40,313 nt of DNA from Longimicrobium sp. Lineage in GTDB: Bacteria > Gemmatimonadota > Gemmatimonadetes > Longimicrobiales > Longimicrobiaceae. Below, piece by piece: positions 1,379 through 40,086 of the stretch (the stretch's first letter is position 1; each line of letters opens with the position of its first letter). The translations under genes and the position numbers were made by a program. The notes beneath the pieces are model-generated. The model was not told the origin of the DNA. It did not search any database and saw only the letters and a program-made list of their open reading frames with translations. Where the stretch lies: assembly GCA_036387335.1 (NCBI GenBank), contig DASVTZ010000262.1, positions 1 to 40,313 on the forward strand, written 5' to 3'.

Positions 1379-1457
1379 GCGTTTTCTCCCGTGGCCGTGG
1401 GTGTGCGTGTTGGGTTCGGAATGTGGCGGGGGCGGTTTCGTCGGGGCAAGGTGGGTG

Positions 1458-1540
1458 GCCCTCACCCCCGCTCGTTCCTCGCTGCCCCCTCTCCCGATAA
1501 CAGGAGAGGGCTGCGCCCTCGCCGTTATCGAGAGAGGGGG
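1458..1540. repeat. terminal module (B) of the modular inverted-repeat element
   Basis: An 83-base copy of the module that begins GCCCTCACCCCCGCTCGTTC and contains CCTCTCCCGATAAC facing GTTATCGAGAGAGG, so it can fold into an imperfect hairpin. Other copies are at 4339-4421, 11071-11155 and 34293-34379. Here it lies between the divergent starts of the gene ending at 1378 and the lpxR gene, not next to a stop codon. Confidence 0.85.
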
Positions 1541-1560
1541 CGGTGTTTGATTACGGGAGA

Positions 1561-4148: not shown

Positions 4149-4421
4149 GGGCAGCCACGTGGGGCGGCCCCTACGGGATTGGTGTCCGGTGCGGGGGGCG
4201 GGGCGGCGGAAAGGGTGGGCAGACACGCAGGTCTGCCCCTACGGGTGTTTGTGATCGCCACGGATGACGGTGCCGCACGGGGCACGGGCGCGATGAATCG
4301 CGCCCCTACCGGGATCTGTGGGCCTCACAACCACATACGCCCCCTCTCCCGATAACAGAGGGCGGAGCCCTTTCCTGTTATCGGGAGAGGGGCAGCGAGG
4401 AACGAGCGGGGGTGAGGGCCC
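4149..4421. repeat. composite repeat A1-A2-A3-B filling the 4112-4500 gap
   Basis: Three hairpins in order, each ending in CCCCTAC: A1 at 4149-4174 (GGGCAGCCACG...), A2 at 4217-4242 (GGGCAGACACGC / GTCTGCCC) and A3 at 4286-4309 (GGGCGCGATGAATCGCGCCC). Then comes module B at 4339-4421 (CCTCTCCCGATAAC / GTTATCGGGAGAGG, ending GAGCGGGGGTGAGGGCCC). The same order recurs at other gaps in this window. No coding potential is seen between 4112 and 4500; the yhhQ promoter starts just after the repeat. Confidence 0.88.
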
Positions 4422-6429: not shown

Positions 6430-7004
6430 TGTCCGTCCGTCCCATCGTCCGCCTGGGCGACCCGCTCCTGCGCGAGATCTGCGCGCCCGTACACGACCCC
6501 GCCGATCCCCACGTGGCGGAGACGGTGCGCGACCTTGCGGACACGCTGGCGCACTCGCGCGCGACCACCGGCTACGGTCGCGCCATCGCCGCCCCGCAGA
6601 TCGGCGTCCTGGAGCGGATCGTCTTCCTGAACGTCGACGGCGCGACGCCGTGGCCCTTCGTCAATCCGTCCATCGTGGCGCACAGCGACGAAGTGGTGAC
6701 GGTATGGGACGGGTGCCTGAGCTTCCTGAGCATCTTCTGCCAGGTGCCGCGCCGGGCGTCGGTCACCGTGCGCTACCAGGACCTCGCCGGCGCCTGGCAC
6801 GAGGTGGAGGCGGACGGCGACCTGTCCGAGCTCCTCCAGCACGAGATCGACCACCTGGACGGCATCCTGACCGTGGACCGCATGACCGACGTGCGCACGC
6901 TGGTCACGCGCGAGGAGTTCGAGCTGCGGTACCGTGCGGAGTCGCCGTACGGGGCCCCCTCCCCCCGGCCCCCTCCCCCGCCTGCGGGGGCGCAGGGCGG
7001 GTGA
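6429..7004 (+). CDS. def: peptide deformylase with repeat-derived C-terminal tail
   Basis: 191 residues. PDF motifs: GYGRAIAAPQIG (residues 48-59), DGCLS (94-98; the family consensus is EGCLS) and QHEIDHLDGIL (137-147). Cys96, His138 and His142 bind the metal and Glu139 is the catalytic base, so the enzyme should be able to remove N-formyl groups from new proteins. The start overlaps the gltS stop (TGATG). From about residue 176 the reading frame runs into a repeat shared with 10984-11046 and 34388-34452, giving a Pro/Ala/Gly tail (PSPRPPPPPAGAQGG), and the TGA itself lies in the repeat. The Glu-to-Asp change in motif 2 and the tail are its odd features; another def copy elsewhere is possible. 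Confidence 0.85.
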   Translation: MSVRPIVRLGDPLLREICAPVHDPADPHVAETVRDLADTLAHSRATTGYGRAIAAPQIGVLERIVFLNVDGATPWPFVNPSIVAHSDEVVTVWDGCLSFLSIFCQVPRRASVTVRYQDLAGAWHEVEADGDLSELLQHEIDHLDGILTVDRMTDVRTLVTREEFELRYRAESPYGAPSPRPPPPPAGAQGG

Positions 7005-7206
7005 GGGGGAGAACTGCAGCCCGCGCCGCACAGACCCGGTAGGGGCGCGATTTATCGCGCCCGTCTCACGGGCTGCGCCGCCGCCCGCCCTCCGCACACC
7101 GATTCCGGTAGGGGCAGACCTGCGTGTCTGCCCACCCTCGCCCCCGCGCGAATCATCGCGGATCGGAAGGAATCCCGTAGGGGCCGCCCCGCGTGGCTGC
7201 CCGTGC
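6954..7206. repeat. composite repeat G-A3-A2-A1 after and inside def
   Basis: Module G at 6954-7014 (CCTCCCCCGCCTGCGGGGGC core ending GGGGGAGAAC) overlaps the 3' end of def. It is followed by A3 at 7039-7065 (GTAGGGGCGCGATTTATC...), A2 at 7111-7136 and A1 at 7178-7206, all in the reverse orientation to 4149-4309. The order is therefore the exact reverse of A1-A2-A3. The gap before the next gene holds no other signal. Confidence 0.85.
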
Positions 7207-7239
7207 CCGCCCCCGCTCCGAACCCCGCCCTCTGACGCC

Positions 7240-7941
7240 ATGCCCGGCCTTTCCGACCTCGCCGCCAGCATCGAGCAGATCACCGGCGCGGATCGTTTCG
7301 CGGATCAGCCGCCCAGCATCATCGTGGTATGTACACGCGACGTTCGAAGGCTCGGGCTGGCGCTGGAGCCATCCGCCGCGGTGATGGAGCGGGTGCAGGA
7401 TGAGGGGCTGGATGCGCTCTTCCTGCACCGGCCGTGGGGCGTGGAGGCAGCCGAGCTTGCGGCAGGCGTCGGGGTTCTGGCGAGCCACCTTCCGTTCGAC
7501 GAGCGGCTGACCATCGGCTACAACCCTGAGCTCGCGCAGGCGCTGGGCCTTGCCAACGTGGAGGCGCTCGGGGCGAAGGGGGGTCGCCCGCTCGGGATGA
7601 TCGGGGACTTCACGGGTGGGAGGGAGGCGCTTGTGAAGCGGATCGCCGCGGAGTTCGGGGAGCCGGAACACGTCGAACCCGGGCGAATCAGCCTGATCGA
7701 GCGCGTGGCGATGGTAGGCGCGATGACGGACGCACTGGTGCGCGACACTGCGGCCAGGGGCGCGGGCGTCTATGTGACCGGACAGATGCGCGCCCCCGCC
7801 CGCGCGGCCGTCCTCGAGACCGGCATCGCCGTCGTCGCGGTGGGCCACAGGCGCGCCGAGGTGTGGGGCCTCCACCTGCTCGCACGCCTGCTCCGCGCGG
7901 AGTGGCCGGGGCTCGCCACCCTCGTGCTCGACGCACCGTGA
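7240..7941 (+). CDS. Nif3-like dinuclear metal-centre protein
   Basis: 233 residues. It matches the Nif3/YbgI/DUF34 family: VVCTRDVRRL (usually 'D.t..v' segment), LFLHRPWGVEAAEL, LASHLPFDERLT for the first metal site, and the C-terminal AVVAVGHRRAEVWGLHLLARLL giving the GH..xE metal ligands. Proteins of this family bind two metal ions in a hexameric toroid; their role is unsettled (one proposal is GTP cyclohydrolase I type 2). The ATG at 7240 was chosen because the domain begins there; upstream sequence is repeat. Its stop is separated from the convergent marR gene only by a 36-base repeat fragment. Confidence 0.75.
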   Translation: MPGLSDLAASIEQITGADRFADQPPSIIVVCTRDVRRLGLALEPSAAVMERVQDEGLDALFLHRPWGVEAAELAAGVGVLASHLPFDERLTIGYNPELAQALGLANVEALGAKGGRPLGMIGDFTGGREALVKRIAAEFGEPEHVEPGRISLIERVAMVGAMTDALVRDTAARGAGVYVTGQMRAPARAAVLETGIAVVAVGHRRAEVWGLHLLARLLRAEWPGLATLVLDAP

Positions 7942-7977
7942 GGGGGCAGCGAGGTGACGAGCGGGGGTGAGGGCTCC
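7942..7977. repeat. single terminal-inverted-repeat fragment between two stop codons
   Basis: GGGGGCAGCGAGGTGACGAG followed by CGGGGGTGAGGGC is the outer end of module B. It begins directly after the Nif3 TGA and ends directly before the complement of the marR stop, so it fills the entire convergent gap. Confidence 0.85.
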
Positions 7978-8442
7978 TCACTCCTCCGCATCCCCCACCA
8001 GCGCCCGCAGGAGGCGGATGGCTTCGCGCTTCTCCTTCTTGCCAAGCGGGGCGAGCGCGGCCTTGATGCGCGCGGTGTGCTCGGGAAGGATGCGCTTCAC
8101 CAGCGACTCGCCCTCGTCCGTGAGCGCGGCGAGGCGGGCGCGGCGGTCGAGGGGGTGGCCGCGGCGCTCCACCAGGCCGCGCTTCTCCAGGCGGTCCACC
8201 AGGTAGGTGATGCCGCCGCTGGAGACCAGGACGCGCCGCTGCACCTCGCCCACGAGCATGGGGCCGCGGTGAAGGAGCGCTTCCAGGACCCCGAAATCCG
8301 CCGGCGTGAGGCCATGCCGCGCCAGGTCGTCCGCGGCGTGGGCCTGCACGGCGCCGTACGCACGCGCCAGCGCCGCCCACAGCCGCAGCGTGAGCGACTG
8401 CGCCTCCGCGGGCGTGGGATCGAGTTCGGGGGTGAGGGGCAT
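7978..8442 (-). CDS. MarR family transcriptional regulator
   Basis: 154 residues with a winged helix-turn-helix: LTPADFGVLEALLHRGPMLVGEVQRRVLVSSGGITYLVDRLEKRGLVERR, then the wing HPLDRRARLAALTDEG. N- and C-terminal helices would form the dimer. MarR proteins are dimeric ligand- or redox-responsive repressors that bind palindromes. The start is the ATG at 8442, preceded by a weak GGAG-like site. The gene is divergent from the Prim-PolC/ligC pair, and a 19-base palindrome (8477-8495) lies between them, so regulation of itself and possibly of the repair genes is plausible but inferred. Confidence 0.85.
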   Translation of the reverse strand: MPLTPELDPTPAEAQSLTLRLWAALARAYGAVQAHAADDLARHGLTPADFGVLEALLHRGPMLVGEVQRRVLVSSGGITYLVDRLEKRGLVERRGHPLDRRARLAALTDEGESLVKRILPEHTARIKAALAPLGKKEKREAIRLLRALVGDAEE

Positions 8443-9532: not shown

Positions 9533-9635
9533 AAGTGCTAAGTGCTAAGTGCTAAGTGCTGGACTGAAGTGCGTGAGTGCGTTAGTGCGTGAGTGCGCTT
9601 TTCACTTAGGACTTAGCACTTAGCACCTAGGACTT
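9533..9635. repeat. 7/8-bp tandem array with inverted arms, all-frame stops
   Basis: Left arm 9533-9560 is four units of AAGTGCT/A with 7-base period. The centre 9566-9597 is four 8-base units of AGTGCGTG/AGTGCGTT. The right arm 9603-9635 (CACTTAGGACTTAGCACTTA...) is the inverted complement of the left arm. It starts 9 bases after the polymerase stop. With 7- and 8-base periods, TAA or TAG appear in all three frames on both strands. Confidence 0.9.
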
Positions 9636-9670: not shown

Positions 9671-10699
9671 ATGGATCTGCCGATCGCGCTGGACTACGCG
9701 CCCATGGAGGCCGAATCGCAGGCGGAGATCCCCGCGGGCGAGGGGTGGCAGTACGAGCCCAAGTGGGACGGCTTCCGCTGCCTCGCCTTCCGCGACGGCG
9801 ACGAGGTGGATCTGCGCTCGAAGTCCGGCAAGCCGCTGGCGCGCTACTTCCCCGACGTGGTGGAGAACCTCCGCTCGCTGCGGGCCAGCCGCTTCGTGCT
9901 GGATGGCGAGATCGTGGTGCCCGTGGGCGATTCGCTCAGCTTCGAGGAGTTGCAGCTTCGCCTGCACCCCGCCGCCAGCCGCGTGCAGAAGCTGGCCGCG
10001 GCGCACCCGGCGGTCTTCATCACCTTCGACCTGCTGCTGGGCGCGCGCGGCGCTCCGCTGATCGAGCGCCCCCTCGCCGAGCGGCGCCCGAAGCTGGAGG
10101 CGTTCGCGGAGCAGTTCTTTGGGGACGACGAGCGCATCCGCCTCTCGCGCGCCACCACGGATGCGGCGCAGGCGAACGACTGGCTGTGCGGCGGCGTGAA
10201 GGGGCTGGATGGCATCATGGCGAAGCGCCTGGACGCCGCCTACGCCAGCGGCGAGCGCACGGCGATGGTGAAGGTGAAGAACCTGCGCTCCGCCGAATGC
10301 GTGGTGGGCGGCTTCCGCTACGCAGCGAAGAAGAAGATCGTCGGCTCGCTGCTGCTGGGGCTGTACACAGCGGACGGGCTGCTGCACCACGTGGGCTTCT
10401 GCAGCGCCATCCCCGAGGAGGAGCGCGCGCGCCTGACTCCCGAGCTGGAGAAGCTGGTGGAGGCGCCGGGCTTCACGGGCTCCGCGCCGGGTGGGCCGAG
10501 TCGCTGGAGCACCGAGCGCTCCACGCAGTGGGAGCCGCTGGCCAGCAAGCTCGTTGTGGAGGTGCAGTACGACCACTTCAGCGGCGACCGCTTCCGCCAC
10601 GGCACCCGCTTCCTGCGCTGGCGGCCGGACAAGGAGCCGCGCCTGTGCAGCATGGAGCAGGTCGTCAAGGACAGCCGGTCGACGGCGGCGCTGTTGTAG
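9671..10699 (+). CDS. ligC: ATP-dependent DNA ligase, LigC type
   Basis: 342 residues. Motif I EPKWDGFR with nucleophile Lys31, motif III VLDGEIVV, motif IIIa FDLLL, motif IV GLDGIMAKR and motif V VKVKN are all intact, followed by an OB-fold domain (GSLLLGLYTADGLLHHVGF). The overall sequence, starting MDLPIALDYAPMEA, closely resembles mycobacterial LigC rather than full-length LigD; no polymerase or phosphoesterase domain is fused. It should seal nicks using ATP. It follows the polymerase gene on the same strand; no Ku gene lies in the window. Its 3' end adjoins a complete modular element. Confidence 0.9.
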   Translation: MDLPIALDYAPMEAESQAEIPAGEGWQYEPKWDGFRCLAFRDGDEVDLRSKSGKPLARYFPDVVENLRSLRASRFVLDGEIVVPVGDSLSFEELQLRLHPAASRVQKLAAAHPAVFITFDLLLGARGAPLIERPLAERRPKLEAFAEQFFGDDERIRLSRATTDAAQANDWLCGGVKGLDGIMAKRLDAAYASGERTAMVKVKNLRSAECVVGGFRYAAKKKIVGSLLLGLYTADGLLHHVGFCSAIPEEERARLTPELEKLVEAPGFTGSAPGGPSRWSTERSTQWEPLASKLVVEVQYDHFSGDRFRHGTRFLRWRPDKEPRLCSMEQVVKDSRSTAALL

Positions 10700-10719
10700 G
10701 GCGGGCGGGGCCGGGCGGG

Positions 10720-11155
10720 GGCCCCTCCCCCGCTCGTTCCTCGCGGCCCCTCCCCCAAAACCGCCTGGGGGAGGGGCGGTGGCGTGTTTGGGTGTGCGGG
10801 GAGGCGGGGTTCGTCGTGCGGGCGGGCACGGGCAGCCACGTGGGGCGGCCCCTACGAGGTTTCGGGCCTGGCGCCGGGCGGCGGGGCGGGGGCAAGGGTG
10901 GGCAGACACGCAGGTCTGCCCCTACCGATGTGGGTGCGCGCAGGGCGGGCGGCGAAGCAGCCCGTGACACGGGCGCGAACGGCAGTTCTCCCCCTCACCC
11001 GCCCTGCGCCCCCGCAGGCGGGGGAGGGGGTCGGGGGGAGGGGGCCCTCTGCGCGCCGAAGCACACCCAGCTCCCTCTCTCGATAACGGCGAGGGCGGAG
11101 CCCTCTCCTGTTATCGGGAGAGGGGGCAGCGAGGAACGAGCGGGGGTGAGGGCCC
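10720..11155. mobile_element. complete modular inverted-repeat element (MITE-like), B'-A1-A2-A3-G-B
   Basis: About 436 bases with related ends: GGGCCCCTCCCCCGCTCGTT at the left and the complement of GGGCCCTCACCCCCGCTCGT at the right, continuing with TCCTCGC. Inside, in order: B' hairpin (10720-10780), A1 (10829-10855), A2 (10898-10924), a decayed A3 (about 10962-10983), G (10984-11046) and B (11071-11155). The locus 34293-34750 has the same modules in the exact reverse order. No ORF for a transposase and no clear target duplication are visible. It fills the gap between the convergent stops of ligC and the DUF885 gene. Confidence 0.72.
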
Positions 11156-11160
11156 TCCTC

Positions 11161-12912
11161 CTACAACCCCGCCGCCGTATCCCCCGGGATCATCGCCCGG
11201 CGCGCGAGCGAAACCGGGAGGCCCAGGCGCAGGAAGCGGTCGTGGAACTCGCGCAGGGAGAAGGGCTTGCCCTGCGACTCCAGGTGGCGGCGGTAGTCGT
11301 CGCGCAGCTTCAGGATCTGCATGCGGCCCAGGGCGTAGTACAGGTACGTAGGATCGTTGGTGCCGCGCTGCGTCTCGCGCAGGGCGGGGAAGGGGGCGAA
11401 GAAGGCGATCTCCTCGAACCGCTTCGCCGCGTCCTCCACCGACGCGCCGTAGGCGTGCATCGCGAGGCCGGCGTGCCAGCGCGCGTGCCGCTGGAGCGCG
11501 CGCCGCAGCTGGCCCAGGCGCACCGCCGGGCTGCCGCCGCCCAGCCCCTCGTCCACCATCATCTGCTCCGCGTAGTGCGCCCACCCCTCCACCAGCGACG
11601 AGGGGGTGAAGACCTTGCGCACCTCGGTGGGGATCTGCGAGCGGTAGAGGAGCTGCACGAAGTGGCCGGGCATCGCCTCGTGCACCGTGATTCCCAGAAG
11701 GCCCGGGTAGTTGAAGTAGGTGAGGTGCTGCTCCTTCTGCTCCGCCGTCCACGCGGGGTCCACGTTGGTGATGTTGTAGAACGCCTCCGTGGCGACGTCC
11801 TCGAAGGGCCCCGGGGTGTCCATGGAGGCGAAGCCCTGCCGCGCGTACTCCGGCGTCGGGCGCACCACCGGCATCCGGTCGCTGGGCAGCGTGACGATGC
11901 CGTGCTCCACGATGAAGCGGCGGATGGTGTCGAGCTGCGCGCGGGCGGTGGGGATGAGCTGCTTGGGCGTGGGATGCACGCCCGTGATGGAGTCCATCAC
12001 CTGGAGCGGAGTGCGGCGCGGGTCGATGCGCGCCGCCTCGCGGGCCACCCGCGCGTGGTAGTCGCGGATGGCGCGCTCGTTCACGTCGCGAAGCTGGTCC
12101 GCCGTCAGGTCGACGAACTCCTCGTACTTCACCTTCCTCTCGAAGACGGAGCGCCCCAGGCGGAAGTCGCCGCGGGCCGTGGGTACCACGTCCCTCTCCA
12201 GCCACGCCGCGTACCCCTCCATCTCGGTGATGGCGCGATTGCGCGCGGCCTCGAAGCGCGTGCGCAGCGCGGCGTCGGCGCTGCCGGCGCCCTGCGCGGC
12301 GAGGGCGGCCGGGAGATCCTGGCGCAGGAAGCTCACTGTGCCGCGCGTGTTCCGCACCGCGTCCGTCGCCCAGAGCTGCGGGACGTCGGCGAGGTTGGCG
12401 CGCGCGGCGGCCAGGACCGCCGGGATGCCTTCCATGCGCGCGATCAGCAGCTCCATCCGCCGCGGCGCAGGGGCGAACTCGCGCGAGGCGATCGACGCCA
12501 GACCACCCGCCACCACGTTGTTGTAGTACGACGGGTTCTTTCGCCACCCGCGCACCTCCTCCCACTCCAGAAGCTCGGCGCGCAGGGCGTGGTCGAGGAT
12601 CTGGTGATCGAACCGCGCGTCCTGGTTAAGGGACGCGGGGTCGATGGTGCCCAGCTCGGCCAGGAATCGGTGCAGCTCGGCCGTACGGCGGTCGATCGCG
12701 GGGCGTGAGAGGTCGGGGAGGCGCTCGTCGAAGCGGTGGATCCCCAGGCCGGTGGAGCGCACCGGATCGGCGGCGTAGTACCAGTCCAGAAAGGTGCGCG
12801 CGAAGCGGTCGTAGCGCGCCTGCTGGCCGGCGTTCGCGGGGGCGGGGGCGGTGCGCGGCGCCGCGGGGGCGCACGCGGCCAGCGCCAGCGCGAGCAGGAC
12901 GGTACGCCTCAT
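11161..12912 (-). CDS. DUF885 family lipoprotein, predicted zinc metallopeptidase
   Basis: 583 residues; a lipoprotein signal with lipobox LAAC (Cys14). The DUF885 signature is clear: HEAMPGH at residues 411-417 (HExxxGH zinc site) and VEGWAHYAEQMM at 441-452 with the likely third ligand Glu. The rest is mostly helical, as in this family. DUF885 proteins resemble M32-type carboxypeptidases, but a substrate is not established. Anchored to a membrane facing the periplasm. The stop is 5 bases from the modular element, and the gene is convergent with ligC. No neighbour suggests a partner. Confidence 0.88.
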   Translation of the reverse strand: MRRTVLLALALAACAPAAPRTAPAPANAGQQARYDRFARTFLDWYYAADPVRSTGLGIHRFDERLPDLSRPAIDRRTAELHRFLAELGTIDPASLNQDARFDHQILDHALRAELLEWEEVRGWRKNPSYYNNVVAGGLASIASREFAPAPRRMELLIARMEGIPAVLAAARANLADVPQLWATDAVRNTRGTVSFLRQDLPAALAAQGAGSADAALRTRFEAARNRAITEMEGYAAWLERDVVPTARGDFRLGRSVFERKVKYEEFVDLTADQLRDVNERAIRDYHARVAREAARIDPRRTPLQVMDSITGVHPTPKQLIPTARAQLDTIRRFIVEHGIVTLPSDRMPVVRPTPEYARQGFASMDTPGPFEDVATEAFYNITNVDPAWTAEQKEQHLTYFNYPGLLGITVHEAMPGHFVQLLYRSQIPTEVRKVFTPSSLVEGWAHYAEQMMVDEGLGGGSPAVRLGQLRRALQRHARWHAGLAMHAYGASVEDAAKRFEEIAFFAPFPALRETQRGTNDPTYLYYALGRMQILKLRDDYRRHLESQGKPFSLREFHDRFLRLGLPVSLARRAMIPGDTAAGL

Positions 12913-13219: not shown

Positions 13220-14806
13220 ATGTGGAAGCGCTCTCCCCTCCTCCTGATCGTCCTGCTGGCCGCCTGCAGCGAATCCGGCTCCGACCAGGGCTCCTCGATC
13301 CAGCGGGAGGAGCTGATCGACTTCGTGGAACTGGAGAGCGCGCAGACGCCGAGCGACAGCGGCGGGCCGGCGGGCATGATGTACGAGACCGCGCAGGCGA
13401 TCCCCCCCGAGCTCGAAGACGGCGGGTCCGGCCTCGCGAGGACGAGGGGCGAACGATACGCGTCGCTCAGCGAGAACCGCTTCATGGATGCGCGCCGGGC
13501 GCCGCTCTCCACATTCGCCATCGACGTGGACGCGGCATCGTACAGCAACGTGCGGCGCTTCCTCACCAGCGGCGCCCTTCCGCCGGCCGACGCGGTGCGG
13601 ATCGAGGAGCTGGTCAACTACTTCGATTACGACTATCCCGATCCCACCGGCGAGGACCCGTTCTCCATCACCACCGAAGTATCCGCGGCGCCGTGGAACC
13701 CGCGCCACCGCCTGGTGCACGTGGGGCTGCAGGGGCGGCGGATGAGCACGGAGCGCCTCCCGCCCAGCAACCTCGTCTTCCTGGTGGACGTCTCCGGCTC
13801 CATGCAGTCGCCGGACAAGCTGCCGCTGGTGCAGGAGAGCCTGCGCATGCTCACGGACCAGCTTCGCCGCCAAGATCGCGTCGCCATCGTGCTGTACGCG
13901 GGCGATGCGGGGGTGGCGCTTCCCAGCACATCGGGCGCGGACAAGGCGGCCATCCGCCGCGCCATCGACGCGATGTACGCGGGCGGCTCCACCAACGGCG
14001 CGGGCGGCATCACCACGGCGTACGAGACGGTGCGGCGCAACTACATCCCCGGCGGCAACAACCGCGTGATCCTGGCCACCGACGGCGACTTCAACGTGGG
14101 CGTCAGCACCGACGCGGAGCTGGTGAAGCTGATCGAGCGCGAGCGCAACGACGGGATCTCGCTCACGGTGCTGGGCTTCGGCACGGGGAACTACCAGGAC
14201 GCCAAGATGGAGGCGCTGGCGGACCACGGAAACGGCAACTACGCCTACGTGGACGACGTCGGCGAGGCGCGCAAGGCGCTGGTGGAGGAGATGGCGGGGA
14301 CGCTGCACACGCTCGCCAAGGACGTAAAGGTCCAGGTGGAGTTCGACCCGGCGCGCGTGCAGAGCTACCGCCTGATCGGCTACGAGAACCGGGCCCTGGC
14401 CGCGCGCGACTTCCACGACGACCGCAAGGATGCCGGCGAGCTGGGCGCGGGCCACTCGGTGACTGCGCTCTACGAAGTCGTCCCCCGCCCCGACGCGGAC
14501 GGCGGGCAGCTGCTGACGGTGCGGCTGCGCTACAAGGCGCCCAACGGCGTGCACAGCCGCGCCCTCGCGCGCGCCGTCCCCAACCGGGTCACGCCCCCCG
14601 CGCGCGCATCGGACGACTTCCGCTTCGCCGCGGCGGTGGCGGAGTGGGGGATGCTCCTGCGCGGCTCCGCCTACCGCGGCTCCGCATCGTACGACGCCGT
14701 GCTCGCCCGCGCCCGCTCCGCCCGCGGCCCGGACCTGCAGGGCCACCGCGCCGAGTTCGTGCAGCTCGTGGAAGCGTCGCGCCGGCTGGGTGTGCGCGGC
14801 GAGTGA
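13220..14806 (+). CDS. von Willebrand factor A domain lipoprotein (YfbK-like)
   Basis: 528 residues. Signal peptide with lipobox LAAC (MWKRSPLLLIVLLAAC). Domains: an N-terminal vWF-associated region at about 85-175 (NRFMDARRAPLSTFAIDVDA...), a VWA domain at about 185-350 with MIDAS DVSGSMQ near residue 190 and ATDGDFNVG, and a C-terminal DUF3520-like region starting near LAKDVKVQVEF. This is the architecture of YfbK and 'calcium-activated chloride channel-like' bacterial proteins. It probably binds protein or metal at the envelope. ATG 13220 gives a correct lipoprotein n-region. Function beyond adhesion or assembly scaffolding is unknown. Confidence 0.85.
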   Translation: MWKRSPLLLIVLLAACSESGSDQGSSIQREELIDFVELESAQTPSDSGGPAGMMYETAQAIPPELEDGGSGLARTRGERYASLSENRFMDARRAPLSTFAIDVDAASYSNVRRFLTSGALPPADAVRIEELVNYFDYDYPDPTGEDPFSITTEVSAAPWNPRHRLVHVGLQGRRMSTERLPPSNLVFLVDVSGSMQSPDKLPLVQESLRMLTDQLRRQDRVAIVLYAGDAGVALPSTSGADKAAIRRAIDAMYAGGSTNGAGGITTAYETVRRNYIPGGNNRVILATDGDFNVGVSTDAELVKLIERERNDGISLTVLGFGTGNYQDAKMEALADHGNGNYAYVDDVGEARKALVEEMAGTLHTLAKDVKVQVEFDPARVQSYRLIGYENRALAARDFHDDRKDAGELGAGHSVTALYEVVPRPDADGGQLLTVRLRYKAPNGVHSRALARAVPNRVTPPARASDDFRFAAAVAEWGMLLRGSAYRGSASYDAVLARARSARGPDLQGHRAEFVQLVEASRRLGVRGE

Positions 14807-14813
14807 ACGGAAC

Positions 14814-15152
14814 AAGTGCGTGAGTGCGTTAGTGCGTGAGTGCGTTCCATTCATTTGTCATCCTGAGGGAGCCGCCCGACGGATGCCGACGGTGCGCCGT
14901 ACTCCTGCGGCGACCGAAGGATCTACTGCGCGAGGCAGGAGGACGGCGACGTACCACGGGCCTCGCGCCACGCGCAGTAGATCCTTCGCTCCGCGCCAGA
15001 GTCTGGAGCACGGGCGAGGGCGGAGGGGCGCGGGGCTCAGGATGACAAAAAAGGCGGAGCGCGGAGGAATTCTCCTCCGCGCCCCCGCCGCCTCAAGCGC
15101 ACTAACGCACTAACGCACTAACGCACTAACGCACTAACGCACTAACGCACTT
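14814..15152. repeat. nested palindrome: tandem array - CATCCTGAG palindrome - inverted tandem array
   Basis: The left arm 14814-14846 carries four AGTGCGTG/AGTGCGTT units. The core 14856-15046 has ends TGTCATCCTGAG and CTCAGGATGACA and inner arms CGAAGGATCTACTGCGCG (14915-14932) and CGCGCAGTAGATCCTTCG (14971-14988), a perfect 18-base match. The right arm 15101-15152 has six units of ACTAACGC, the complement of the left arm. The composite fills the gap between the convergent VWA and PPOX genes; the last unit copy supplies the PPOX stop. Confidence 0.9.
15047..15082 (-). terminator. intrinsic terminator, minus strand
   Basis: GCGCGGAGGA-ATTC-TCCTCCGCGC (15059-15082) followed on the minus strand by six T (complement of 15047-15052). 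It would end transcription of the PPOX gene after the tandem array. Confidence 0.6.
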
Positions 15153-15155
15153 CTG

Positions 15156-16775: not shown

Positions 16776-17101
16776 AGCCGGGGGATGAATCCCCCGGCTG
16801 GAACCACGGGAAGCCGGCTGAAGCCGGCTCGTGAGGCGCGGCATCAAACCCCTAGTCCGCGCAGGCGGACTTTGCGTGGTTCCAGCGGCGAATTCATTCG
16901 CTCCTGGCCCGGGCCTCGGCGGATTCACGAGGCACGGGCAGCCACGCGGGGCTGCCCCTACGAGGTTCCGGCGCGTGCGGCGAGGATCGAGATCGGCAGG
17001 GGGGCGCGGTGAATCGGCGGTGATCGCGCCCCTACCGCCGATCTCGCCCCCGAGTCCGCGCAGGCGGACTTTGTGCTGTTGTTGCCGCGAGTTCACTCGC
17101 C
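16776..17101. repeat. cluster of short hairpin repeats in the 16757-17127 gap
   Basis: AGCCGGGGGATGAATC... hairpin at 16776-16799, AAGCCGGCTGAAGCCGGCT at 16811-16829, GTCCGCGCAGGCGGAC at 16855-16870, a GGCGAATTCATTCGC-type hairpin at about 16888, an A1 hairpin at 16936-16961, an A3-like one at about 17004-17035, and a 50-base unit at 17052-17101 that is repeated inverted at 39971-40020. No gene is seen. The last repeat ends 26 bases before the zapE start. Confidence 0.85.
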
Positions 17102-18993: not shown

Positions 18994-19080
18994 GGTTCGC
19001 CTCACGGTCGGGTGAAATCGTCGGCCCACGATGGACCGCCGTCGCGGCGCGTCCAACGCAATTCAGGTGCCGAACGGGGG

Positions 19081-19336
19081 AAGTGCGTGAGTGCGGGAGT
19101 GCGGGAGTGTGGAAGCGAGCACCGGACTGGCTCGGAGTCCTAAGTGCTAAGTCCTTAGTGCTGAACAACATTGCGCTCTTCTTTGCCCGCTTATTCCCGA
19201 GTAAAGACAAAACAGCAATCTCACACAGAGACACGGAGACACAGAGGAAAGGGCACGGAGCCAACTCCGTGGCTCCGCGCCCCCACTAGGCACCAGGCAC
19301 CAGGCACTTGGCACTTAGGACTCAGGACTTAGGACT
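19081..19336. repeat. tandem arrays and 8-bp-period repeat in the 18994-19321 gap
   Basis: AGTGCGTG/AGTGCGGG units at 19081-19112, a left arm GTCCTAAGTGCTAAGTCCTT at about 19137-19156, a CACACAGAGACACGGAGACA stretch at 19222-19241, and a right arm of CACCAGG/CACTTAGGACT units at 19290-19336. The right arm overlaps the last codons of the DHH gene. No gene is seen in the gap. Confidence 0.85.
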
Positions 19337-23149: not shown

Positions 23150-23155
23150 CAAGCG

Positions 23156-23206
23156 AGACGGCTTCAGCCGTCTTCCCGTGGTTCCAGCCGGGGGATTCAT
23201 CCCCCG
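23156..23206. repeat. paired hairpin repeat after the SET gene
   Basis: GAGACGGCTTCAGCCGTCTT followed by CCCGTGGTTCCAGCCGGGGG and ATTCATCCCCCGG: two hairpins. Decayed relatives occur at 16776-16829 (inverted) and 40045-40086. Confidence 0.8.
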
Positions 23207-23294
23207 GCGCCCACCCGCGCCGCCGGGCGAACGGATTGTATCCCCTTGCGCCGCAATGCGAAACGAACAACGTTTGTGGTCCGTACGGGGCGCC

Positions 23295-27959: not shown

Positions 27960-28224
27960 CCGGGGCGGGCGGACACGCAGGTCCGCCCCTACCGGTTTTC
28001 GGTGCAAAAAGGCGGGCGGTGGGGCGGGGGCGGGCACGGGCAGCCACGTGGGGCGGCCCCTACGGGGTTGGGTGTCCAAGGCAGGCGGTGGGGCAACGCG
28101 GGGCACGGGCGCGATGAATCGCGCCCCTACGGGATCCGTGGGTTGCGGGGAGATCCACGCCACCGCCCCTCCCCCAGGTAGTTTTGGGGGAGGGGCCGCG
28201 AGGAACGAGCGGGGGAGGGGGCCC
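27960..28224. repeat. composite repeat A2-A1-A3-B' between convergent genes
   Basis: A2 at 27967-27992, A1 at 28037-28063, A3 at 28107-28130 and the B' hairpin at 28163-28224 ending next to the EAL gene's stop. A1 and A2 are swapped relative to other loci. Nothing else is seen in the 27934-28229 gap. Confidence 0.82.
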
Positions 28225-32384: not shown

Positions 32385-34292
32385 ATGAACGTCGTCAACG
32401 TCCAGAACCTGCACAAGAGCTTCGGCCCCCGCGTCCTCTTCGACGGCGTCTCCTTCGCCATCGACGAGGGCGAGAAGGTGGGCTTCATCGGGGTGAACGG
32501 GTCGGGAAAGAGCACCCTCTTCCGCATCATCGGCGGCATGGAGCCGCCCGATGACGGGACGCTCGCCTTCCAGCGCGGGATGCGCGTCGGCTACCTGGAG
32601 CAGGAGCCGGAGTTCGAGACGGGCGCCACCATCCTCACCGCTGCCGCCGGGGGCACGCCGGAGCTGAACGAGGCCATCGCCGCGTACCACGACGTCGGCG
32701 GCCGCCTCACCCGCGGCGAGGGCGACACGGACCGGCTCCTCGCGCGGCAGGGAGAGCTGGCAGCCCGCATCGACGCGCTGGGCGGATGGGACCACGAGCA
32801 CCGCATGGAGGCGATCCTCACGCGCCTGCAGGTGGACCGCTGGGAGCGCCCGGTGGAAGGTCTGAGCGGGGGCGAGCGGAAGCGGGTGGCGCTGGCGCGC
32901 GTCCTCCTGCAGCAGCCCGAGCTCCTGCTAATGGACGAGCCCACCAACCACCTGGACGCCGACACCACGCTCTGGCTGGAGGGGCACCTGCGCGAGTACC
33001 CCGGCGCGGTGATGCTCATCACCCACGACCGCTACTTCCTGGACCGCGTGGTCACCCGGATGATCGAGGTCACCCCCGGCGAGCTGACCGCCTTTCCCGG
33101 CGGCTACACCGAGTACCTGGAAGCCAAGGCCGAGCGCACCGCGCGCCTGGCCGTCGAGGCCGACAAGCGCAGCCGCCTCCTGGAGAAGGAGCTGGCCTGG
33201 GTGCGCCGCTCGCCCAGCGCGCGCACGGGAAAGCAGCAGGCGCGCATCAACCGTCTGGACGACCTGCAGGCCGAGCACCGCGACAAGCGCCTCCCCACGC
33301 GCACCGCCGTCGAGATCGCGATGGCGGACGCGCCGCGGCTGGGGCGCACGGTGCTGAACCTCCACGGCATCCGCAAGGCGTTCGGGAGCCACACGCTGGT
33401 GCGCGACTTCAGCACCATCCTGCAGGCGGGGGAGCGCATCGGCATCATCGGGCCGAACGGGGCGGGGAAGACGACGCTCCTGCGCATCATCATGGGCACC
33501 GAGCCTCCCGACGCCGGCGAGGTGGAGCTGGGCAAGAACACGCACATCGCCTACTTCGACCAGCGCCGCGAGGAGCTGGATCCCGAGAATACCGTCTATG
33601 AGGCCGCCGCCGAGCAGGACTGGGTGGTGGTGGGCGGCGAGCGCATCCACCTGCGCTCGCACCTGGAAACGTTCCTCTTCCCCGTCCCGCAGCAGCGCCA
33701 GAAGATCAAGTCGCTCTCCGGCGGCGAAAAGAACCGGCTCCTCCTCGCCCGCCTCTTCCTGCGCGAGGCGAACCTGCTGATCCTGGACGAGCCCACCAAC
33801 GACCTGGACCTCGTCACGCTCCAGGTGCTGGAGGACGTCCTCTCCGACTACCCCGGCTGCGTGCTCCTGGTGACGCACGACCGCTTCTTCCTGGACAAGG
33901 TCGCCACGGGCCTAATCGCCTTCGAGGGGAACGGCGAGCTGCGCCGCCACGCGGGCGGCTACGACCTGTACCGCCGCCTCAAGGAGCAGCGCGAGTCCGA
34001 AGCCGCCGCGGCCGCCGCCCCCGCCGCGCGCAAGTCCACCCCCGGCGCTCCCGCCCGCCCGTCCACCGAGCGCAAGCTGAGCTACAAGGAGAAGCGCGAG
34101 CTGGAGGGGATGGAGGAAGCGATCATGAAGGCCGAGGCCCGCAAGGAAGAGCTCGAGTCCCGCCTCGCCGACCCAGGCCTGTACGCCACCGGCAACGACG
34201 AGGTGCAGCGCGTGACCGCCCAGTTCCGCGAGGCCAGCGAGCAGGTGGATGCGCTCTACGCGAGGTGGGCGGAGCTGGAGGCGGTGGGGTAG
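32385..34292 (+). CDS. uup: ABC-F family ATPase, Uup type
   Basis: 635 residues: two ABC domains with Walker A GVNGSGKST (about 36-44) and GPNGAGKTT, signatures LSGGERKR and LSGGEKNR, Walker B LLLMDEPTNHLD and LLILDEPTNDLD, an ABC-F linker between them (HDRYFLDRVVTRM... and the region around EKELAWVRRSPSARTGKQQARINRL), then an Ala/Pro spacer and a C-terminal coiled coil (about 560-635) as in Uup. Soluble, no membrane domain; ABC-F proteins act on ribosomes, and Uup also affects DNA-repair and transposon excision in E. coli. Its stop directly touches the modular element. Confidence 0.9.
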   Translation: MNVVNVQNLHKSFGPRVLFDGVSFAIDEGEKVGFIGVNGSGKSTLFRIIGGMEPPDDGTLAFQRGMRVGYLEQEPEFETGATILTAAAGGTPELNEAIAAYHDVGGRLTRGEGDTDRLLARQGELAARIDALGGWDHEHRMEAILTRLQVDRWERPVEGLSGGERKRVALARVLLQQPELLLMDEPTNHLDADTTLWLEGHLREYPGAVMLITHDRYFLDRVVTRMIEVTPGELTAFPGGYTEYLEAKAERTARLAVEADKRSRLLEKELAWVRRSPSARTGKQQARINRLDDLQAEHRDKRLPTRTAVEIAMADAPRLGRTVLNLHGIRKAFGSHTLVRDFSTILQAGERIGIIGPNGAGKTTLLRIIMGTEPPDAGEVELGKNTHIAYFDQRREELDPENTVYEAAAEQDWVVVGGERIHLRSHLETFLFPVPQQRQKIKSLSGGEKNRLLLARLFLREANLLILDEPTNDLDLVTLQVLEDVLSDYPGCVLLVTHDRFFLDKVATGLIAFEGNGELRRHAGGYDLYRRLKEQRESEAAAAAAPAARKSTPGAPARPSTERKLSYKEKRELEGMEEAIMKAEARKEELESRLADPGLYATGNDEVQRVTAQFREASEQVDALYARWAELEAVG

Positions 34293-34750
34293 GCCCTCAC
34301 CCCCGTCTCGTTACACTCGCCTGCCCCCTCTCCCGATAACAGGAGAGCGCTGCGCCCTCTGTTATCGAGAGAGGGGGCTTGGGTCGGCTGGCCCCCACCC
34401 CCCGGCCCCCTCCCCCGCCTGCGGGGGCGCAGGGCGGGGGAGGGGGAGAACACCCTGTACGCCCGCGCAGATCCGGTAGGGGCGCGATTCATCGCGCCCG
34501 TCCCCCGCGTGCCGCGACCTTCGCCCCGCGCACAGAACCCGGTAGGGGCAGACCCACGTGTCTGCCCACCTTTTCCCGCACCGCGACCCCCGCTTGGTTC
34601 ACCCCGATCCTTGTAGGGGCAGCCCCACGTGGCTGCCCGTGCCCTCCGCGGGACCGAACCCGCCCACCCTGCACCAACGCCTGCGAACCGCCCCTCCCCC
34701 AGGCAGTTTTGGGGGAGGGGCCGCGAGGAACGAGCGGGGGAGGGGGCCCC
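34293..34750. mobile_element. complete modular inverted-repeat element, B-G-A3-A2-A1-B'
   Basis: 458 bases, module order the exact reverse of 10720-11155: B (34293-34379), G (34388-34452), A3 (34477-34502), A2 (34542-34570), A1 (34615-34640), B' (34689-34750). Ends GCCCTCACCCCCGTCTCGTT and (complement) GGGGCCCCCTCCCCCGCTCG are related inverted repeats. It begins at the base after the uup stop and ends two bases before the complement of the NRAMP-like gene's stop. No transposase ORF. Confidence 0.72.
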
Positions 34751-34751
34751 C

Positions 34752-35939
34752 CTACCACATCCCCGCCACCGTCGTCACGATGGTATACACGGCCATCACC
34801 GCCATCGCGATCGCTACGGCCCAGCCGAACACGGACATCCAGGCCGGGTGCCGGTAGTCGCCGACAATGGCGATGCGGCGCGCGGCCACGAGCATCGCGC
34901 CGAGAGCGAGCGGCAGGACGAGCGCATTGGCGGCGCCGGCGGCGACCAGGAGCTGCACGGGGCGCCCCACGGCCAGGAAGACGGCAGTGGAGAGGACGAC
35001 GAAGAGGATGATTACGGTGCGCTGCCGCGCCTCCACGCGCGTGCTCAGGGTGCGGAGAAAGGAGACGGAGGTGTAGCTCGCGCCGACGATGGAAGTCACC
35101 GCCGCGCACCAGATCACCAGCCCGAAGAGCCGCAGACCCACCTCCCCCGCGGCGTGCTGGAAGACGGAGCCGGGCGGGTTCGCGGGGTCCAGCGTGTAGC
35201 CGGCGGAGACCACGCCCAGCGCCGCCAGGAAGAGCCCCACCCGCATGATGCTGGTGACGAGAATGCCGGTCACGGCGCTGCGCGAGACCTCGGGGAGCGC
35301 GGCGCGCCCGGAGATCCCCGCGTCGAGCAGCCGGTGCCCGCCGGCGAAGGTGATGTAGCCGCCGACCGTCCCGCCCACCAGCGTCACCACCGCGACCCAG
35401 TCCAGCTTCAGCGGCGCCACGGAGCGGAGGACCGCCTCCCCGAACGGCGGCCGCGAAGTCGCCACCACGTACAGGGTGAGGGCGATCATCACGAACCCCA
35501 GCACCTGCGCGAAGCGGTCCATCGCTCGGCCGGCGTCGCGAAAGAGGAAGAGACCGACCGCCGCACCCGCGCTGGCCAGCGCCCCCATCGCGAGTGGCAT
35601 CCCGAAGAGCGCCTGCAGCCCCAGCGCGGCCCCCGCCACATTGCCGATGTTGAAGATGAGCCCGCCGAGCACCACCAGCACGGCGAGGAGCGTCCCCAGC
35701 CCCGGCGCCACCCTGTTGGCGATGTCCTGCGCGCGCCGCTCCGCCACGGCGATCACGCGCCAGATGTTGAGCTGCGCGCCGACGTCGAGGATGACCGACG
35801 CCAGGATGACGAAGCCGAAGCTCGCCCCCAGCTTGCCGGTGAACACGGCCGTCTGGGTGAGGAAACCCGGCCCGATGGCGGAGGTCGCCATCAGGAACGC
35901 CGCGCCGACGAGCGCGCTCCGCCGTTCTCGCTGCTCCAC
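34752..35939 (-). CDS. NRAMP-fold transporter (YcsG-like) of the 5-oxoproline cluster
   Basis: 395 residues with about 11 helices. The helix-1 region reads AIGPGFLTQTAVFTG where metal-transporting NRAMP proteins have the DPGN metal site, so a divalent metal is probably not the substrate. It lies 2 bases after pxpA, with GGAGG inside the pxpA end upstream of its GTG, as ycsG does in Bacillus, so a role in import of 5-oxoproline or a related acid is likely but unproven. Confidence 0.75.
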   Translation of the reverse strand: MEQRERRSALVGAAFLMATSAIGPGFLTQTAVFTGKLGASFGFVILASVILDVGAQLNIWRVIAVAERRAQDIANRVAPGLGTLLAVLVVLGGLIFNIGNVAGAALGLQALFGMPLAMGALASAGAAVGLFLFRDAGRAMDRFAQVLGFVMIALTLYVVATSRPPFGEAVLRSVAPLKLDWVAVVTLVGGTVGGYITFAGGHRLLDAGISGRAALPEVSRSAVTGILVTSIMRVGLFLAALGVVSAGYTLDPANPPGSVFQHAAGEVGLRLFGLVIWCAAVTSIVGASYTSVSFLRTLSTRVEARQRTVIILFVVLSTAVFLAVGRPVQLLVAAGAANALVLPLALGAMLVAARRIAIVGDYRHPAWMSVFGWAVAIAMAVMAVYTIVTTVAGMW

Positions 35940-39970: not shown

Positions 39971-40086
39971 GGCGAGTGAACTCGCTGCAACAACAGCACA
40001 AAGTCCGCCTTCGCGGACTCCGGGTTGAGTTCCGCGTCTCTCCAGTCGGGCTTCAGCCGCCTTCCCGTCGTTCCAGCCGGGGGCGG
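39971..40086. repeat. 50-base repeat plus decayed hairpin repeat after the DUF1707 gene
   Basis: 39971-40020 (GGCGAGTGAACTCGCTGCAA, CAACAGCACAAAGTCCGCCT, TCGCGGACTC) is an inverted near-copy of 17052-17101. 40045-40086 (TCGGGCTTCAGCCGCCTTCC...) is related to 23156-23206. Confidence 0.82.

What the first reader, a model, noticed from the sequence alone, without database searches (positions are those of the whole stretch)
10720..11155. A modular MITE-like element of about 440-460 bp, present twice as full-length copies in opposite orientation
The loci 10720-11155 and 34293-34750 contain the same six modules (B', A1, A2, A3, G, B) in exactly reversed order and have related terminal sequences (GGGCCCCTCCCCCGCTCGTT / GGGCCCTCACCCCCGCTCGT). 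Subsets occur at 1458, 4149-4421, 6954-7206, 7942 and 27960-28224. An ordered set of hairpins between inverted ends, with deletion derivatives around, is what a non-autonomous mobile element would leave.
Basis: seen in the sequence. Interest (0 to 1): 0.75.

Follow-up and report, generated by a model that had tools for sequence, protein, structure and literature searches.

The report
Mosaic hairpin arrays behind bacterial genes
The two elements are members of a family of well over a hundred ordered strings of DNA hairpins that sit directly after the stop codons of genes in the soil bacterium Longimicrobium; they behave less like a jumping element than like a patchwork whose pieces are swapped between copies with the joints at the hairpins.

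Summary
The composite is real and genome-wide: 148 A1-A2 and 108 A3-A1 tandems against 0 for reversed control patterns. The order cap-(H)-G-A3-A1-A2-K-cap predominates. One detail is wrong: A3 is only a truncated relic in the 10720-11155 copy.

The MITE reading is only partly supported. The terminal inverted repeats are two oppositely oriented stand-alone hairpin-plus-tail modules, found alone in other species. Hairpins are 87-99.8% identical between copies (K 87%; H, G and A about 97% or more), but linkers only about 65-75%. No pair of copies looks like a recent whole-element duplicate. Fourteen of 15 loci are shared with a sister species.

The best reading is a BIME-like mosaic of GTAG-tagged REP palindromes in an unusual head-to-tail, heterotypic form, lying downstream of genes. 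Modules are exchanged between loci by copying that usually ends at hairpins, and turnover is polar: the K-cap end is stable, the G/E end is replaced. Both Y1 transposase (RAYT) genes here are flanked by a different repeat, so no mobiliser is identified. A 3'-end role is inferred from position. New variant of a known kind.

The parts
10717..11155 (-). Composite copy 1 (cap-H-G-[A3 relic]-A1-A2-K-cap read on the - strand) between convergent genes 9671-10699 and 11161-12912
34293..34750 (+). Composite copy 2 (cap-H-G-A3-A1-A2-K-cap), directly after the TAG of 32385-34292 (0 bp) and 1 bp before the reverse stop codon of 34752-35939
10718..10744 (+). Cap tail, K side, copy 1 (GGGGCCCCTCCCCCGCTCGTTCCTCGC)
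10746..10778 (-). K hairpin, copy 1
10830..10855 (-). A2 GTAG-tagged hairpin, copy 1
10900..10925 (-). A1 GTAG-tagged hairpin, copy 1
10986..11027 (-). G hairpin, copy 1
11071..11125 (-). H hairpin (GATAAC...GTTATC), copy 1; absent from the orthologous locus of the sister species
11129..11155 (-). Cap tail, E side, copy 1
34293..34320 (+). Cap tail, E side, copy 2
34325..34376 (+). H hairpin, copy 2
34409..34450 (+). G hairpin, copy 2
34476..34499 (+). A3 GTAG-tagged hairpin, copy 2
34542..34567 (+). A1 GTAG-tagged hairpin, copy 2
34613..34638 (+). A2 GTAG-tagged hairpin, copy 2
34689..34721 (+). K hairpin, copy 2
34723..34749 (-). Cap tail, K side, copy 2
1455..1541 (+). Stand-alone cap tail plus H hairpin
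4149..4421 (-). Partial array A2-A1-A3-H-cap tail
6961..7208 (+). Partial array G-A3-A1-A2
7949..7977 (-). Cap tail relic between convergent genes 7240-7941 and 7978-8442
16936..16961 (-). Single A2-type hairpin
27967..28224 (-). Array with variant order A1, A2, A3 (minus strand) followed by K-cap; linkers visibly retained in the sister species

Best explanation
The composite is a mosaic extragenic repeat: an ordered, head-to-tail array of three different GTAG-tagged REP-type palindromes (A3, A1, A2) about 68-70 bp apart, preceded by a G hairpin. It is closed by one or two cap modules (H or K hairpin plus a GAACGAGCGGGGG..GGGCCC tail) that lie just behind stop codons. The arrays are old residents of their sites. 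Copies of hairpin-to-hairpin segments pass between loci by ectopic gene conversion or a similar copying process that starts and stops mostly in the near-identical hairpins, so modules and linkers are reshuffled and whole-array sets drift in concert within a species. Turnover is polar: the K-cap end is the anchor and the G/H/E end is replaced. The hairpins are held constant by selection for the fold or by repeated homogenisation. The likely benefit for the cell, if any, is at gene 3' ends (termination, mRNA end protection or insulation of convergent genes). Shown: order, spacing, positions, fold and covariation, module replacement at orthologous loci, hairpin-bounded shared tracts. Inferred: gene conversion as the mechanism, selection as the cause of hairpin constancy, and any 3'-end function.
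For: Order and copy number. Modules 87-99.8% identical versus linkers about 65-75% with constant length. Fourfold-site divergence from sister species G006 is 15.1% over 19,938 sites, yet same-locus linkers are mostly no closer than random paralogs; the share at or above the 90th percentile of paralogs is G-A3 0/8, A3-A1 1/14, A1-A2 4/15, A2-K 10/13, hence the polarity. Modules are swapped at shared loci: own H-cap where G006 has G or nothing, and the reverse. The A3-A1 linker type differs between species (permutation p<0.001). Near-identical A3-A1 intervals occur at unrelated loci (up to 98%), with the adjacent interval at background in most cases (16 of 19). Hairpin stems covary: A1 6 double compensations against 1.1 expected, A2 10 against 2.2, 0 of 300 shuffles. 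Folding z -8.5 and -6.5. Position: arrays in 26/50 convergent, 42/224 codirectional and 5/66 divergent intergenic regions; 40 caps facing a stop codon at a median of 11.5 bp. TAG stop enriched next to arrays, 27/48 against 124/516, as Di Nocera et al. report for GTAG REPs (PMC3733652).
Against: If conversion alone replaced most linkers since the species split, more linkers should have a close relative in the genome than are seen (7 of 100 A1-A2 and 12 of 100 A3-A1 at 0.85 or more), even allowing for incomplete listing; no recent-copy interval was found in 31 G006 arrays. The outer edge of exchanged H-cap segments has no long homology, so simple homologous recombination does not explain that side. 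Genomes are metagenome assemblies, many contigs end inside arrays, and chimeric joining cannot be wholly excluded. Gene calls come from a simple self-trained caller.
Confidence: 0.6

Rival explanations
1. Classical MITE: a non-autonomous transposon of 440-460 bp with terminal inverted repeats, moved as a unit by a transposase encoded elsewhere.
For: Inverted related ends, several hundred bp, many copies, conserved order. Cap-H modules present in one species and absent at the same place in the other.
Against: Linkers far more diverged than hairpins; no recent full-length duplicate among 1711 pairs; 14/15 arrays shared between species; no consistent target duplication (7 of 11 have none, the rest GC-rich 3-6 bp matches, p=0.016 against re-paired flanks); caps exist alone elsewhere; no transposase with these ends found.
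Confidence: 0.1
2. REPIN/RAYT system: the A palindromes are moved by a Y1 (HUH) REP-associated transposase of this genome.
For: A hairpins carry the GTAG tag that TnpA-REP recognises (PMC8266576); two Y1_Tnp genes are present.
Against: Both genes, and one each in G006 and G002, are flanked by a different repeat. G003 has six Y1 matches but essentially no A hairpins; G004 has about 180 A hairpins and no Y1 match at 86% completeness. A units are head-to-tail, not inverted pairs.
Confidence: 0.12
3. Functional 3'-end element under selection as a whole: a bidirectional terminator or 3'-UTR structure kept at each locus, with linkers simply free to vary.
For: Abuts stop codons, enriched between convergent genes, caps read the same way from either gene, strong stable folds, covarying stems. 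In codirectional pairs the K end faces the stop 28:11.
Against: Free neutral linkers should differ by about 15% between species, not 30-45%. Many convergent pairs have no array (24/50). Whole modules are swapped or missing between orthologs. No U-tract. Does not explain shared linkers at distant loci. May be true in addition to the mosaic model.
Confidence: 0.13
4. Assembly artefact: the mosaics are chimeras made by short-read assembly through identical hairpins.
For: Metagenome assemblies; several contigs end inside arrays.
Against: The hairpins are 24-50 bp, shorter than reads; both flanks are syntenic across species at 14 shared loci; the two species show consistent, different linker types.
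Confidence: 0.05

Closest known systems
GTAG-tagged REP palindromes (Di Nocera et al. 2013, PMC3733652)
   Same: GTAG tag next to a 20-26 nt palindrome, hundreds of copies, extragenic, close to the 3' ends of genes, TAG stop codons next to the repeats, variable spacers of similar length.
   Different: Three different palindromes in a fixed head-to-tail order; that paper finds head-to-tail dimers absent or rare. Gemmatimonadota do not figure in the parts of the paper read. No RAYT flanked by them.
BIMEs (bacterial interspersed mosaic elements)
   Same: Mosaic of several conserved modules around REP palindromes, in intergenic regions, varying in number.
   Different: BIME REPs alternate in orientation (PMC2817692 abstract; PMC8266576); here all A units point the same way and the composite is closed by cap modules.
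STAR elements of staphylococci (PMC3532100)
   Same: Conserved short motif repeated with 40-44 bp spacers that differ between loci and lineages; a distinct, more stable anchor spacer at one end; unit number varies.
   Different: STAR repeats one motif; here three different hairpins plus caps. The authors exclude frequent exchange between STAR loci, whereas exchange is seen here.
MITEs
   Same: Short, non-coding, inverted related ends, many copies.
   Different: No unit-wise recent copies, no constant target duplication, ends are independent modules.
REPINs
   Same: High-copy extragenic palindromes with a GTAG tag.
   Different: REPINs are inverted pairs tied to a RAYT; neither holds for the A modules here.

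Membership tests
MITE | Terminal inverted repeats belonging to the element | tested here: inconclusive
   Related inverted tails are present at both ends, but each is part of a cap module that occurs alone and one or both caps are often missing.
MITE | Target site duplication of fixed length | tested here: inconclusive
   11 two-capped copies: longest flanking match 0,0,0,6,3,5,0,3,0,0,0; mean 1.5 against 0.84 expected, p=0.016, in GC-rich flanks. No fixed length.
MITE | Copies alike over their whole length (unit transposition) | tested here: not met
   59 arrays, 1711 pairs: 19 recent-copy intervals, adjacent interval at background in most, none whole-element.
MITE | Filled versus empty sites in relatives | tested here: not met
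   14 of 15 two-flank-syntenic arrays also present in G006 (sampling favours shared sites). Only cap or H modules are polymorphic.
MITE | Genome-encoded transposase with similar ends | tested here: not met
   Only Y1_Tnp was searched; both genes are flanked by another repeat. DDE transposases were not searched.
GTAG REP (for modules A1, A2, A3) | Palindrome of 20-40 nt with a GTAG tag | tested here: met
   GTAG + 8-bp stem + 4-6 nt loop.
GTAG REP (for modules A1, A2, A3) | High copy number, extragenic, near gene 3' ends | tested here: met
   720 pattern matches (104 in the reversed control) in the genome; positions.
GTAG REP (for modules A1, A2, A3) | Stem maintained by paired changes | tested here: met
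   A1 and A2: double compensations exceed all 300 shuffles; A3 weaker (18 of 300 shuffles reach it).
REPIN/RAYT | RAYT gene flanked by the same palindromes | tested here: not met
   20 Y1 loci inspected, no adjacent GTAGGGGC palindrome.
REPIN/RAYT | Two palindromes in inverted orientation | tested here: not met
   A units are predominantly head-to-tail.
BIME | Mosaic of repeated modules in intergenic regions | tested here: met
BIME | REPs in alternating orientation | tested here: not met
   148 direct A1-A2 and 108 direct A3-A1 tandems.
BIME | Binding of DNA gyrase, IHF or Pol I | not testable with these tools
   Needs biochemistry.

The most novel reading that the evidence does not exclude
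An organised, polar module-exchange system: arrays grow and are renewed from one end by an unknown enzyme or replication-linked process that copies hairpin-to-hairpin segments between loci while diversifying or sampling the constant-length linkers, somewhat as in a spacer array.
Probability: 0.15. Interest if true: 0.75.

Novelty: new variant of a known kind. Interest (0 to 1): 0.45.

Why it matters
It shows REP-type repeats in Gemmatimonadota organised as heterotypic head-to-tail arrays in fixed order, with two sister species in which module turnover can be read locus by locus. That makes two open questions testable: how REP/BIME mosaics are assembled and homogenised without a recognisable RAYT, and why their hairpins stay constant while spacers turn over faster than synonymous sites. 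The arrays also break assemblies and probably seed rearrangements.

Tried and rejected
Known RNA family: Rfam, no hit at gathering threshold. CRISPR-like array: rejected because the repeats differ in a fixed order and the linkers share a consensus; cas genes were not searched. Autonomous version carrying a gene: the 3.9-kb stretch between the two G006 parts of the 34.3-kb locus was translated but not matched to families, so left open. Linker hypermutation: rejected as the general cause because A2-K linkers at several shared loci, and the linkers at 27.9 kb, differ roughly as neutral sites do. Pure duplicative spread of a young family: rejected by low linker identity. Target duplications: no consistent signal. 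Text search for GTAGGGGC in papers: primer and other unrelated hits on top. Literature on Longimicrobium repeats: nothing relevant.

Full report
What was checked. The two loci were read and the composite searched in its own genome (5.82 Mb, 265 contigs). There are 58 significant matches, several of full length in either orientation. Pattern searches free of alignment give 148 A1-A2 tandems (35-55 bp between exact parts) and 108 A3-A1 tandems, both 0 for reversed controls. In about 675 kb of own sequence the common arrangements are G-A1-A2-K, H-G-A1-A2-K, H-G-A1-A2 and H-G, with a few others (A3 was too short for that profile and was located by pattern). Record titles with an exact match to the cap tail name Longimicrobium (Gemmatimonadota).

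Anatomy. Reading from cap E: tail GGGCCCTCACCCCCGCTCGTTCCTCGC, H hairpin (GATAAC..GTTATC), G hairpin, then GTAG-tagged A3 (GTAGGGGCGCGATTCATCGCGCCC), A1 (GTAGGGGCAGACCTGCGTGTCTGCCC) and A2 (GTAGGGGCCGCCCCACGTGGCTGCCC), then K hairpin and the second tail, inverted. Start-to-start spacings are about 67, 68, 69-70 and 76 bp. Both caps are the same kind of thing, a hairpin plus the tail GCGAGGAACGAGCGGGGG..GAGGGCCC. Caps or parts of them occur without the A units in congeners and one other genus of the family: H in G005, K-tail in G003, G008, G009 and G014, G-type hairpins in G008. The terminal inverted repeats are therefore two cap modules facing outwards. The single strands fold far better than shuffles (z -8.5 and -6.5), and A1 and A2 stems vary in a paired manner. 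The commonest A2 form has a C-T mismatch at the fifth stem pair.

Position. With a self-trained gene caller, arrays are found in 26 of 50 convergent, 42 of 224 codirectional and 5 of 66 divergent intergenic regions (convergent against rest p=2e-7). Cap ends that face a stop codon do so at a median of 11.5 bp; copy 2 starts at the base after its TAG. Genes ending within 35 bp of an array use TAG in 27 of 48 cases against 124 of 516 elsewhere. All this is what Di Nocera et al. describe for GTAG REPs (PMC3733652). In codirectional pairs the K end faces the upstream stop codon 28:11.

History. G006 is a sister species with 15.1% fourfold-site divergence and long syntenic blocks. Of 15 own arrays with both flanks aligned, 14 have an array in G006, but about ten of these differ in module content. 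The H-cap of copy 1 (about 11046-11155) is absent in G006; elsewhere G and H-cap replace one another at the same site. Linkers at shared loci retain orthology in a gradient: A2-K 10/13, A1-A2 4/15, A3-A1 1/14, G-A3 0/8 at or above the 90th percentile of paralogs, where 10% is expected (a few of these loci have only one syntenic flank). The K-cap end is thus the anchor. The A3-A1 linker consensus differs between the species; in the own genome 83 of 100 listed A3-A1 linkers are of the GTG type and 17 of other types.

Copying unit. Within the own genome, linkers at unrelated loci are sometimes nearly identical (C203, C247 and C98 share an A3-A1 interval at 91-98%), and the shared stretch usually stops at or just past a hairpin. 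Of 19 recent-copy comparisons, the neighbouring interval is at background in 16; in none is the whole element shared. In the C203-C247 pair the shared tract runs from the E cap to the A1 hairpin, in keeping with the polarity. The simplest process is ectopic gene conversion between near-identical hairpins. It is inferred, not shown. It leaves two points open: how the outer, gene-facing edge is exchanged without homology, and why more linkers do not have close relatives.

Mobiliser. The genome has two Y1_Tnp genes, one with an internal TAG. Both are flanked by the GGTTCCAGCCGG/GTTGAAACCGC-type palindromes, another repeat family that is also in the window, not by A, G, H or K modules. Across the genus, Y1 gene number does not track A-hairpin number. 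DDE-type transposases were not searched.

Comparison. By the A modules this belongs with GTAG REPs; by its mosaic order it works like a BIME, but it fails the alternating-orientation feature; by its constant-length variable spacers and anchor end it resembles STAR elements (PMC3532100). It fails as a REPIN and is not shown to be a MITE. I therefore call it a new variant of a known kind: a head-to-tail, heterotypic GTAG-REP mosaic with caps.

Limits. These are metagenome-type assemblies and many contigs end in arrays. Sampling was centred on hits. Thresholds for modules are regular-expression based. No expression data exist.

Noticed in passing
window 16777-16831, 16849-16901, 17036-17101, 23154-23208, 39971-40049: A second dispersed palindrome family (GGTTCCAGCCGGGGGATTCATCCCCCGGC, GCCGGCTGAAGCCGGCT, AGTCCGCGCAGGCGGACTTTG); it flanks both Y1 transposase genes of this genome and those at L156 (G006) and L159 (G002), so it is probably the RAYT-linked REP family here.
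   Followed up: partly
window 9558-9603, 14805-14850, 15090-15153, 19064-19117: Short tandem repeats of about 8 bp (GTGCGTGA/GTGCGTTA/CGCACTAA), recurring in intergenic regions, some next to runs of CACTTAG/GGACTTAG (9595, 19290).
   Followed up: no
L038 (G003) and L040 (G008), middle of the locus: The K-tail module appears to lie inside NRPS-like coding sequence, between domains; possibly an in-frame insertion used as an interdomain linker (read by eye).
   Followed up: no
window 34293-34750 against L103/L134/L135 (G006 contig C7): In G006 about 3.9 kb with extra reading frames lies between the orthologs of the two genes that flank copy 2, and gene order changes at the array near window 7949-7985 as well; arrays may seed rearrangements.
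   Followed up: partly
L031: One of the two Y1 transposase genes has an internal TAG, so it may be decayed.
   Followed up: no
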